This document shows positions 21,601 through 42,773 of a DNA stretch of 64,000 nucleotides, one piece after another. This DNA comes from Chrysomallon squamiferum (taxonomy: Eukaryota; Mollusca; Gastropoda; Neomphalida; Peltospiridae), in contig CM022665.1 of NCBI GenBank assembly GCA_012295275.1, positions 9,416,476-9,480,475 on the forward strand, given 5' to 3'. The notes beneath the pieces are model-generated. The model was given only the letters and a program-made list of their open reading frames with translations, had not been told where the DNA came from and made no database searches. Numbering within the stretch: position 1 is the stretch's first letter; every line of letters begins with the position of its first letter. The position numbers were made by a program, and so were the translations under genes.

Positions 21601-21732
21601 TTAAAACGTCATGGCGTCTTTCATTATGTGACTGATGAACTTGAAGAGATCCGACCACGCCTGCTCCAGTTCTGGCGTCCATCTGTCCCCCAAGACTGGC
21701 TGAATAGCCCAGATAAACTGAGGCCCAATCAA
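21601..21732 (-). CDS. Globin X-like exon 3: G-H helices and stop
   Basis: 43 codons plus TAA. The acceptor ATGTTACAG precedes TTG at 21732; intron 2 (21733-22603) is phase 0 at G7. The protein reads LIGPQFIWAIQPVLGD, then RWTPELEQAW, and ends SHIMKDAMTF followed by TAA at 21603-21601. This matches the globin X/neuroglobin pattern of a G helix, a short GH loop with W-T-P-E, and an H helix with A-W near its start. The tail is short with no extension, so all membrane attachment must come from the first exon. Intact, with no frameshift. The 3' untranslated region runs left; it contains an (AAT)n tract at 21438-21486. Confidence 0.9.
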   Translation of the reverse strand: MIGPQFIWAIQPVLGDRWTPELEQAWSDLFKFISHIMKDAMTF

Positions 21733-22603
21733 CTGTAACATAAAAACAGTGCTCTGAATGATAAAGTAAAACAAACTTTTCTATGATGTTTCAAAATTAT
21801 TATTATTATTATAGTCGTTGTTCTTGTTCATGTTGTTGTTGTTGTTTTTATTAATACTGTTAATGTCTTTAATTATTAGCATGTAATCTGTCATTTATTC
21901 TGAATCATGGTTATATCCATTAGGTATTCAAAGAAATGTGTCTTGCAGGATCCTAGGTTGCTGCCTAACCTAGACAGTGTTAGTGTGTTTGAGAATTAGA
22001 AGAGTTTGAGTAGATCTTACTCCCATAATTAGCCGATGGAATAATCAGTGCGTCATGGTGAACGATACTATTATTAAAGGAGTCATTGTTTTATTTAACT
22101 TCTCACTTATTTGTGGTAATGCGGGATACATAGTAACCGTTGCTGATTTATCGTTAGTTAGTTGTAACAGAATAGCAGCGATATTTTTTTATTGCGTTTG
22201 TAACTATACTAACAATGCGATGATTAATATTTTCTGAACGTACACCTTGTTTTGTGTCACAGCTATGGCTTATTGCTGTAACACGTGTTACGAAGTGTAT
22301 TAGAAATAAGCGTTTTTTCACGTCACACATAAACAGCTTATGATAAACACTCGAGACAATGTTTCCCCACAGTCTCCAAAACCAATCACGGAGTAAACTG
22401 ATTTCTTATTATAATGGCTGCTAATAATCAAAAACACAAAAACGGTTTTAATTAGCATTGACTATTAAACATTTTTGCTTGCTATGAATATATATATATA
22501 TGTGCATAAATATGGATAATAATTTCTTTCCTCGAGGGAGGGTAAGAGTTCAAGCAAGTATTCACGCAATCATGTTCATATTACTATTGAAACCCATACT
22601 CAC
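21733..22603 (-). other. Intron 2 of the globin X-like gene
   Basis: 871 bases, phase 0, GTGAGT to TTACAG. Contains a short (ATT)n/(GTT)n stretch at 21795-21850 and no recognisable element. Confidence 0.85.
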
Positions 22604-22829
22604 ATCAATGTAATCAACCTTTGCACTGTACATGACGTGACGCGATCCCAGGTCGTGCAGCATGTCCTGCAGCTTTTTAGGTTCGTTGATTCGTGCAAGG
22701 CACTTCTCTACGGTGCCCATTACTCGCAGTGCATGGGACCTCAGCTGATTGCTGTACTTCAGATCTTCCATTGATTTACCTTTGAATGGCTCAAACACAT
22801 CCTGCACATCTGGATGAGTTTCAAACAGT
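22604..22829 (-). CDS. Globin X-like exon 2: heme pocket (helices B end to G start)
   Basis: 226 bases. The acceptor is a pyrimidine-rich stretch ending TTTTAG (AG at 22831-22830); the donor is GTGAGT from 22603. The first A completes the B12 codon, then 75 codons run from LFETHPDV to VDYID. Within this exon, residue 12 (Phe) aligns with CD1, residue 32 (His in LRSHALRVM) with distal E7, and residue 64 (His in LGSRHVMY) with proximal F8; in isoform a these are about F94, H114 and H146. Spacing E7 to F8 is 32 residues, as in neuroglobin. All residues needed to hold heme, including bis-His binding, are present. There is no intron near E10, an extra intron position I recall for some globin X-type genes. 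Shared by all three upstream first exons. Confidence 0.9.
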
Positions 22830-25800
22830 CTAAAAGTAAAGAGACAAAAATTTACTTAAACGAAATTTTAATCAGATGATATTACCGAGAACAACAGTTA
22901 TTACCGTTAAGTTAACTTTCTTCTTGTACTGATGCTGCTGCTGCTGCTACTACGACTACTAGTACTATAACAACAACAACAACTACTACTACTACTACTA
23001 CTTTTACTACTGCTACTGTTAATTATTATAATAAAAGATAATATAATAATAACACTGTTCATAAAATTTCTTTTACTATTTTGTAATCACATAATTATAT
23101 TTTAAAAGAAAAAAAAAAAAAAAAAAAAAAACCAACGTTGTCTCTAAAGTCATATGATTTCCCACATGGTCAGTTTTGTTTGTCACGTTTGTAAAATATT
23201 TAGCAGTTTTGATCAAAATAACTGTGAAAATGACAGGTTGTCGATATTACAACGAGCTTGTAAAGCTGATAATTATTAGTTGCAGAAATGACAGGTACCG
23301 TCTCTCCAAGAAGAATCATGACATACTAAAAGATATCATAGGCTTTCACCGACGGAATCCTTGGAAATTAATACAGTATAAAAATCACAGTCCTTTTTCA
23401 TGTTTACTGTGTTTTTTAATAACGACTTGGTTCGTGATGAATCCTACTAAAACGACACACCGACATTTGATTAATTCGTGTTGTGTGTTTTATTGTATAC
23501 GCGGCTTTGAAAATTGAAACACTGTTTAAATCTGCTTCATAAACAAGTATTAATAAACCAAGGTCAAATATGACAGATTGAATCACTACCATGGCGCCAA
23601 ACCCCTTTTTGTTAGGAATTCTTACTTTACTAATTTTTTTTTTTCTTTTGTGTTCTTCTTCTTCTTCCATTTTACCTTTTTTTTAAATTTATTTATTTAA
23701 CAAAAATAAAAGCAAGAGATCACGCGTTGATTCGAGGAGGAAAACACACACACTAGGAACAGATTATTTCGTTAGTAGCTCATAAATGAATATGTTTAAG
23801 AAAAGTGCATTAATTCTGATAATGTTGTCATTTCCATTAAAGGCCAGACCATCAATTCCAGGTTAATATTAATAGTAAAATCCGCGGTTCCTTCTGCAAT
23901 TCTGAGACAGACGAAAACGATTATAGCATTAATATAAATAGCTGTCTGCTGTTTGTGATTGGATTTATTTTACTATTTATGTTCTTGTTATTTGCTAGGC
24001 TAAACATATTTAGTCAGTGTCTCAGTTCTGACATTGTTAAATAAAACGGAGACGAAAGACAATATTGCACTTTATTCAGCAGTGACACGCATACACACGT
24101 AAATACATATATAAATACATTCACAAATTCATCCATCCACCCTTAAATGTATAGTAATACACACATACATGGATACATACATACATACATACATATATTC
24201 TTACAAATAAAATCTAAGCACATACACACACATGCATACTTACATCCACACATCATACCACATACCAATATCTACACGAATAAATATTTGATCACAGATA
24301 CGGAAAGAGACTTACGAATCATTTTAATACTGGTGTGTTTAATTTACTTAAAACAATTAATAATAAATAAATAATGAAATAAAAATAACAAATAAAATAA
24401 AATCATCTGAAACAAAACACAACAAAAAACAACAAAACAACAACAAACTATCAAAACAAACATATAAACAAATACCGCACCAGATTGTATTTCTAAAAAC
24501 TGGGGCACTGCAGACAATGAGTTTTATAAGAAACTTTTGTATTCCGAATGGAGTCTATAAAATAAAAATGATTGTTGAGGAAAACCTATTTATGAAGGAA
24601 AAGGTTGACCTTTATTTAACCACTCTGAAGAGGCAAAGAAGCCTCGTTTTAGCGTAAAGAGACGGCACTGTATCAGAAATCAGACGACAATTAAAAAATA
24701 TCAACGAAAACTTCTTTGACGCAAAAAGCTTTTAGCAAATCGTACACTTTGACGAGAATAAATACACCAACAAATCTGTCTGTGTTCACTGTATTTCCTG
24801 CAGTTTTATTTGAACATCATTATTTGGAGTGCTTCATCGTACGTACGTCCATTTCTGTAAAAGTGGAGATAGACATTATTACCGAGAAAAACACAGACCT
24901 TACTCATTTAGAAAAGTTATGAATAATCTGAGTATAACTGCAATACTAAATTGTCAGCCTCTTTGATTATAAAAAGACCATCTGTACTAATACTTTGTTT
25001 TCTATATTATTATGCATCGTATTTACCAAACTGGGAGTTACCTTTTGCGTGAATGAGAGAGTTTTGTTTATTATATATGTGTGTGTGTGTGTGAATAAAC
25101 ATGTTAAATATAATAGTCTCGCTCTCTCTCTGTATATATAGATGTGTGTGTGTGTATACATACATACATATATATATATATTTTTATCATATATCCTGAT
25201 TATATACTCACATAATTACTTATTCAGATGCATTAAAGAAGTCGTTTATAGCTCTTATGTAATAACATATTACTTTGGGTTATCATGAAAAGTATACAAT
25301 CCATTAACGAAATATCACGACAAACACTGTTATGTTTCTCTTGTTATTACGAAATCTAACAAGCACTGATGCTCTGAAGTGAAAAAATAAAAAATGAAAT
25401 ATGAAATTGTGTCAACTTACAGTTCAAACATACATAATATGTAATCACAACTGTTTGTTACGGCTTGACTCAGTTTCATGCCTTTATTATACATTTTCTA
25501 TTTGAATATGATTGTCACAGTTTGACCGCGTTTCCAAACCTGAGGAATCGATCGCAGCATGAGAAATTAGTATTGGATGCTGACAAGGTAATATAAAATA
25601 GTCACTTACATAAAAATATTGTTGAATCTGAAAACATAAACTTTTAAAAAGTCGCAGGTATTAACTTTAGATTTTAATCAGTATTGTTACGAGAAAGTGA
25701 AATCGGTGAGATTTACCTTAAGTTATTGTTACTATTAAATACAACAACAACCAAACAAACAAAAAAAAAAAAAAAAAAAATTGTATTTAACGGTGCAGTC

Positions 25801-42242: not shown

Positions 42243-42342
42243 TAAACCAACAACAACAACAGTAACAGCAACAGTAATAACAACAACAACAACAACAACA
42301 ACAACAACAACAATAATAATAATAATAATAATAATAATAAAA
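42243..42342. repeat. (CAA)n/(TAA)n array
   Basis: CAA units passing to TAA units. About 190 bases into the intron from the exon 1a donor. Confidence 0.95.
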
Positions 42343-42528
42343 TATATTCCAAAAGCACAACACATAGTTTCTTCATATTTCCATAATGATGAGAGCCTTC
42401 TCTTCTGTAGTCACAGATCCGCGCCTGTGAAACTACAGCCTATGTATAATAAATATTTTCAATACGTATTAATTTCTTCAAATAATCAGTTATTATGTAA
42501 TGCCTAATATTTTATCTATATTACTTAC

Positions 42529-42773
42529 TTCATGAACATGACGACCCCAACTTTGTTCATATCCGCCTCTATGTAGCTCCAAGATTCTGCAACCAACTTT
42601 TTCTGCTCCTCTGTGAAACTTGGTGCCGTTTGCAACGAATCTTTTTGAAACACAGGTGAATCACCTGAATTCATCGTACCATTTGTCGTAAGGTATTTTT
42701 TGGCACCTGCACTGGTGTTACAGTCCACCTTTCTGCCAGCCAATTTAGATTTCTTAGAATGATGTCCACCCAT
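42529..42773 (-). CDS. Globin X-like first exon 1a (myristoylated, basic leader)
   Basis: Encodes 81 codons plus two bases (AA) of the next. The ATG at 42773-42771 gives MGGHHSKKSK; an in-frame TTG three codons upstream is not needed. Gly2, Ser6, Lys7 and Lys8 fit the N-myristoyltransferase consensus, and the run of Lys/Arg/His to residue 15 could hold the myristoylated end on acidic membranes; there is no Cys before residue 18. Residues about 50-82 are helices A and B: a T-E-E-Q-K-K start, the conserved A12 Trp (ESW) and VGVVMFMK with Phe at B10. The exon ends ATG-AA followed by donor GTAAGT (42528-42523). Spliced to 22829, AA+A gives Lys and continues LFETHP, the normal globin sequence. Without splicing, an in-frame TAA inside the donor stops translation. 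Farthest 5' of the three first exons. Confidence 0.85.

What the first reader, a model, noticed from the sequence alone, without database searches (positions are those of the whole stretch)
21601..42773. One globin core served by three alternative first exons
Three minus-strand exons, each with its own Met-Gly start, A-B helix block and good donor in the identical B12.2 phase, precede a single exon 2 plus exon 3. Each joins in frame to exon 2 (Lys, Lys or Arg at B12, then LFETHP). No other core exon is visible between them. This resembles the variable-first-exon layout of clustered protocadherin or UGT1A genes, which I do not know to be described for a globin. It would let one heme domain be expressed with different leaders from different promoters.
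Basis: partly seen in the sequence, partly recalled or inferred. Interest (0 to 1): 0.92.

Follow-up and report, generated by a model that had tools for sequence, protein, structure and literature searches.

The report
Snail globin with interchangeable first exons
In a snail genome, three different opening segments lie in front of one shared globin body, so one gene could probably make several membrane-type globins with different front ends, an arrangement that annotated proteins of an apple snail, a clam and a spider also suggest.

Summary
Three minus-strand coding first exons (1a, 1b, 1c), each starting Met-Gly and ending at a good donor in one phase, precede one exon 2 and one exon 3; each joins in frame. 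No second core was found in the window or 100 kb to each side (5 kb of which reads N). First and second codon positions are conserved among the exons while third positions are at chance, so they evolved as coding sequence. A fourth first exon (1d, 4938-4700) lies downstream of the core. Its Gigantopelta aegis counterpart has its own core; here that core was not found.

The best support comes from relatives: Pomacea, Ruditapes and Argiope each have an annotated protein pair with identical cores and first exons only 46-57% identical, parting at this junction. Exon 1a is ancestral: Gigantopelta P0001 is 1a plus this core. No orthologue of 1b or 1c was found and no RNA was available, so their use is inferred. 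Best reading: a globin-X-like gene whose alternative first exons swap the N-terminus and A-B helices; a new variant of a known kind.

The parts
42529..42773 (-). Coding first exon 1a (MGGHHSKK...VVMFM + 2 nt), donor GTAAGT at 42528; orthologous to exon 1 of Gigantopelta aegis P0001
   Evidence: 53/81 identical to P0001 exon 1; tree group with P0001 and 1c 95/87
38110..38369 (-). Coding first exon 1b (MGLCHSN...VIMFM + 2 nt), donor GTGAGT at 38109; long branch, tree position unresolved, no orthologue found
   Evidence: no hit
31950..32185 (-). Coding first exon 1c (MGGYISK...VVIFL + 2 nt), donor GTGAGC at 31949; groups with 1a
   Evidence: no hit
22604..22829 (-). Common exon 2 (LFETHP...VDYID), acceptor TTTTAG before 22829, donor GTGAGT at 22603; carries CD1, E7 and F8 (helix numbering recalled)
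21601..21732 (-). Common exon 3 (LIGPQF...DAMTF stop), acceptor TTACAG before 21732
4700..4938 (-). Fourth coding first exon 1d (MGCFSSKK...VVMFM + 2 nt; a further ATG at 4941), donor GTAAGT at 4699; most likely belongs to a neighbouring second gene, not to this core
   Evidence: 68/79 identical to Gigantopelta P0016 exon 1

Best explanation
This is one globin-X-like gene with three alternative coding first exons. Shown: three intact, homologous, phase-matched first exons and a single visible exon 2/exon 3 core, with the codon pattern of long coding constraint. Inferred: transcription starts upstream of any one of the exons, and its donor splices to the exon 2 acceptor; exons lying between are skipped for want of a usable acceptor (none strong within 300 nt of 1a or 1c; 1b has one strong pyrimidine-rich candidate 205 nt upstream). 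Each choice gives a complete globin with the same core (CD1 to H helix) but a different N-terminal anchor and A-B helix block. All three begin Met-Gly with Ser at position 6, which I recall as the N-myristoylation pattern. 1b has a cysteine at position 4, while 1a and 1c have none near the start. From the published zebrafish globin X result, exon choice could then shift the protein between firm membrane attachment and weaker membrane or nuclear location. 1a is the ancestral exon; 1c, and probably 1b, are later exon duplicates that diverged fast.
For: In-frame joins and phases. One core in 264 kb; genome-wide the next best exon 2 match is 48% identical on another contig. Codon positions 1 and 2 conserved in all six exon pairs (0 of 5000 shuffles reach the observed value) while position 3 is not above chance (p 0.05-0.42) over 36 codons. 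Neutral decay at 30% substitution keeps start, frame and donor in 0.4-0.6% of 20,000 simulations per exon. Donors of 1a-1c rank at the 98.7-99.9 percentile of all GT in the window (recalled matrix). Relatives: of 103 homologues, 82 could be split at the junction; three pairs among these have 100% identical cores with first exons 57.3%, 52.2% and 46.5% identical: Pomacea P0024/P0027, Argiope P0043/P0045, Ruditapes P0023/P0026. Five of these six proteins carry an isoform label, and the two of each pair list a contig of the same length. Gigantopelta P0001 joins exon 1a to this core (115/118). Zebrafish C3S globin X, as a GFP fusion in 3T3 cells, went to the nucleus (PMC3176823, passages).
Against: No RNA evidence for any junction here. 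Only two named Gigantopelta proteins were among the 103 homologues, neither with a 1b or 1c exon, and exon-only searches found no relative of 1b (118 candidates) or 1c (1 candidate) at E up to 1. 1b and 1c have long branches (1.62 and 1.19 against 0.13 for 1a), which could mean relaxed constraint. No upstream sequence is shared by the three exons (1 shared 9-mer against 5.6 expected; no blastn match between flanks). The two Ruditapes proteins bear different product names, so that they are isoforms of one locus is inferred from their identical cores. In Ruditapes and Argiope both alternatives keep Cys3, so an anchor switch is not general.
Confidence: 0.68

Rival explanations
1. 1b and 1c are orphan first exons: remnants of tandem globin genes that lost their exons 2 and 3, or exon copies that are no longer transcribed. 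Only 1a is used.
For: Long branches of 1b and 1c; no relatives found; in Gigantopelta only 1a plus core and 1d plus its own core were seen; 1d here shows that a first exon can stand without a visible core.
Against: Frames, starts and donors are intact although 1b and 1c share only 57% of nucleotides with 1a over the last 110 bases, and third positions are saturated; no decayed exon 2 or 3 was found between them. Recent loss of use cannot be excluded: at 10% substitution 12-17% of neutral simulations stay intact.
Confidence: 0.2
2. One promoter with mutually exclusive exons: a shared non-coding exon 0 is spliced to 1a, 1b or 1c, then to exon 2.
For: Globin genes of a clam have non-coding first exons and pre-coding introns (PMC4732748, passages); 1b has a strong acceptor-like site 205 nt upstream of its ATG.
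Against: No strong acceptor within 300 nt upstream of 1a (best 82.9 percentile) or 1c (79.4), against 97.9 for exon 2 (recalled matrix); acceptors further upstream were not examined.
Confidence: 0.1
3. Assembly artefact: separate tandem genes whose near-identical cores were dropped in assembly.
For: A 5-kb N stretch lies at the window edge, and the second gene's core was not found in the assembly.
Against: No N within the window; two cores would have to vanish from unique sequence between 1a, 1b and 1c while all first exons stayed in order.
Confidence: 0.04

Closest known systems
Clustered variable-first-exon genes: UGT1, UGT2A, GCNT2, protocadherins (PMC1885805, passages)
   Same: Tandem homologous first exons, a single constant 3' set, birth-and-death of variable exons; UGT2A has only two and GCNT2 three variable exons
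   Different: Here the exons are small (78-86 codons), split a globin fold inside helix B, and no shared upstream motif or own promoter was shown
KChIP and DPP6/DPP10 genes (PMC3973911, passages)
   Same: Common core with alternative 5' exons; in KChIPs these encode different membrane anchors, including N-myristoyl and S-palmitoyl forms
   Different: Unrelated proteins; here the variable exon is also part of the folded domain
Lucina pectinata haemoglobin I (PMC4732748, passages)
   Same: Mollusc globin gene with two alternate first exons proposed and conserved B12.2 and G7.0 introns
   Different: There the alternative exons are untranslated and the protein is the same
Globin X, membrane-bound globin of fish (PMC3176823, passages; PMC3206486, passages)
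   Same: N-terminal extension with Gly2; introns at B12.2 and G7.0
   Different: Fish GbX has two further introns and Cys3; I saw no alternative first exon in the passages read
Annotated protein pairs Pomacea P0024/P0027, Ruditapes P0023/P0026, Argiope P0043/P0045
   Same: Identical core, different first exon, break at the same residue
   Different: Two exon types seen per pair, not three; Argiope is a spider

Membership tests
Variable-first-exon gene cluster | Several homologous first exons in tandem, same strand, same phase | tested here: met
Variable-first-exon gene cluster | Single set of common downstream exons | tested here: met
   one exon 2 and one exon 3 in 264 kb, of which 5,000 bases are N
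Variable-first-exon gene cluster | Each variable exon preceded by its own promoter | tested here: inconclusive
   no shared upstream sequence; promoters not measurable here
Variable-first-exon gene cluster | mRNAs joining each variable exon to the common exons | not testable with these tools
   no RNA for this species; annotated pairs in three other species
Globin X (clade III globins) | Globin domain | tested here: met
   Pfam PF00042, E 1e-19 for the 1c form
Globin X (clade III globins) | Introns at B12.2 and G7.0 | tested here: met
   phases from sequence; positions of fish GbX in PMC3206486; the two further fish introns E10.2 and H10.0 have no counterpart in the uninterrupted exons 2 and 3 here
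Globin X (clade III globins) | N-terminal Gly2 for myristoylation | tested here: met
   all four first exons begin Met-Gly; 1d can also start Met-Met-Gly. Sequence only; acylation not predicted by a tool
Globin X (clade III globins) | Cys3 for palmitoylation | tested here: not met
   1a and 1c have Gly3, 1b Leu3-Cys4; only 1d has Cys3. For this reason I call the gene globin-X-like; most arthropod GbX lack the palmitoylation site too (PMC7457136, passages)
Globin X (clade III globins) | Place in a tree with vertebrate globin X | not tested
   only protostome relatives were in the trees; a hit named gb_IIIA of Platynereis scored 4e-35

The most novel reading that the evidence does not exclude
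Membrane globins of the globin-X type in protostomes repeatedly duplicate their first exon and use it as a swappable cassette on one heme core, so that a single gene tunes where the globin sits (membrane, raft, nucleus) and its A-B helix, by promoter choice.
Probability: 0.35. Interest if true: 0.8.

Novelty: new variant of a known kind. Interest (0 to 1): 0.6.

Why it matters
The role of globin X is unsettled, and its membrane anchor is the main clue. A gene that keeps the heme core fixed and swaps the anchor is a natural experiment that separates what the anchor does from what the heme does. I saw no earlier case of a globin fold assembled from alternative coding first exons in the listings of my paper searches, and it would account for isoform labels in public annotation of molluscs and a spider.

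Tried and rejected
Tried without result: exon-only homologue searches for 1b and 1c (no hits at E up to 1); shared upstream sequence among 1a, 1b, 1c (none); Rfam and tRNA scans of the window (nothing). Considered and rejected: 1d as a fourth exon of the same core, because it lies about 17 kb downstream of the core on the same strand and its Gigantopelta counterpart has its own core; trans-splicing of 1d to this core is not needed. The tree position of 1b is not resolved: the program warned of a long-branch join with Crassostrea P0070, and holding 1a, 1b, 1c and Gigantopelta 1 together is not rejected (p-AU 0.47), nor is 1b with 1c (0.09). Splice-site scores use matrices recalled from memory.

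Full report
What is there. On the minus strand, three exons begin with ATG GG, run open for 78-86 codons and end two bases into a codon before a good donor: 1a 42773-42529, 1b 38369-38110, 1c 32185-31950. Exon 2 (22829-22604) starts with the missing base after TTTTAG and ends before GTGAGT; exon 3 (21732-21601) ends in TAA. The three joins are in frame and give Lys, Lys and Arg at the junction. The spliced 1c form matches the Pfam globin domain at 1e-19, and plant haemoglobins, neuroglobins and cytoglobins in the PDB.

One core only. Profiles made from 82 first exons and 67 cores of relatives, run over six frames of the window plus 100 kb each side, found the same four first exons and the same single core; the next hits had E-values of 0.14 or more. 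The window has no N; one stretch of 5,000 N lies immediately beyond the window's low end. In the whole genome (404.6 Mb, 22 contigs) the next exon 2 is 48% identical on another contig (23 candidates scored, and the tool calls counts of large families lower bounds).

The exons are coding and old. Across the last 36 codons of each of the six pairs of first exons, matches at codon positions 1 and 2 exceed every one of 5000 shuffles, while position 3 is not above chance (p 0.05 to 0.42). Simulated neutral change of 30% leaves start, frame and donor intact in 0.4-0.6% of runs; of 10%, in 12-17%. So 1b and 1c were kept as coding sequence for most of their history; a recent loss of use cannot be excluded.

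Relatives. A protein search with the 1c form returned 103 proteins at E up to 0.001 of 170 candidates. The closest is Gigantopelta aegis P0001, whose core is 115/118 identical and whose first exon is orthologous to 1a (53/81). A second Gigantopelta protein, P0016, carries the counterpart of 1d (68/79) on its own core (86/118 to ours). So 1d belongs, most likely, to a neighbouring second gene whose core is in the N stretch or lost; searched with P0016, the assembly shows no better core than the one here (71%). The species is thus probably a peltospirid (family) or near relative; [quoted passage not shown]

Precedent in annotation. I split at the junction those 82 of the 103 proteins where this was possible and compared all pairs. 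Five of the six are labelled isoform X1, X2 or X3; P0027 is a hypothetical protein, and the two Ruditapes proteins bear different product names. This is what alternative first exons on one core would give. In trees of the first exons, 1c groups with 1a and Gigantopelta 1 (95/87, 93/94) and Ruditapes X3 with X1 (97/83, 97/86); the Pomacea pair is joined in the smaller set (99/97) and unresolved in the larger. The 1c, clam and apple-snail duplications therefore look separate; 1b is unplaced. In these loci one exon is slow and another fast (branch lengths 0.13 against 1.19 and 1.62; 0.06 against 0.97; 0.19 against 1.0); Argiope is even (0.22, 0.18).

Against. No transcript of this species was at hand. 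The two Gigantopelta proteins seen have no 1b or 1c exon, and exon-only searches found no relative, though the second drew only one candidate. No upstream sequence is shared, unlike UGT1 (PMC1885805, passages).

Mechanism. The donors and the exon 2 acceptor (97.9 percentile) are strong. No good acceptor lies within 300 nt upstream of 1a or 1c; 1b has one 205 nt upstream. Cap-proximal splicing from separate starts is therefore favoured over a shared exon 0, but not shown. Exon 1 supplies the leader, helix A and helix B to B12; exon 2 supplies CD1 Phe, E7 His and F8 His (helix numbering recalled; B12.2 as in PMC3206486, passages). B10 is Phe in all four exons (numbering recalled). The leaders differ in acylation residues: Cys4 in 1b, Cys3 in 1d, none near the start in 1a and 1c. 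In zebrafish globin X the C3S mutant, as a GFP fusion in 3T3 cells, was exclusively nuclear (PMC3176823, passages), hence the proposal of a location switch.

Literature. In searches I read listings only, several of them capped (for example 12 of 1,947, 20 of 92); none of the listed titles or abstract starts describes coding alternative first exons of a globin. The arthropod globin paper has no occurrence of isoform, splice variant or first exon, and the Platynereis paper none of isoform, splic or first exon. Most subscription papers are not held. Closest in print is the proposed non-coding pair of first exons of Lucina HbI.

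Noticed in passing
window 4938-4700 (-): Fourth first exon 1d, orthologous to Gigantopelta P0016 exon 1, without a visible core in this assembly.
   Followed up: yes
G000:C1:9411476-9416475, just below the window: Exactly 5,000 N abut the window's low end; could hold the core of the 1d gene. Gap or withheld stretch not told apart.
   Followed up: partly
window 4941-4936 (-): 1d starts ATG ATG GG (Met-Met-Gly); the same Met-Met-Gly stands in Gigantopelta P0016 and Haliotis P0004, odd for a protein that should be myristoylated on Gly2.
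   Followed up: no
P0023/P0026, P0024/P0027, P0043/P0045: Annotated protein pairs with identical globin cores and different first exons in a clam, an apple snail and a spider.
   Followed up: yes
G000:C10:9655947-9656183 (-): A second globin-X-like core, 48% identical in exon 2, on another contig; its first exon was not read.
   Followed up: partly
window 61157-61501 (-): Open frame with a weak FLYWCH zinc finger match (E 0.0019, below the curated cut-off).
   Followed up: partly
G000:C1:16498852-16499295 and C7:28372839-28373126: Two more distant globin matches at 29% and 34% identity, the first in an uninterrupted 197-codon frame.
   Followed up: no
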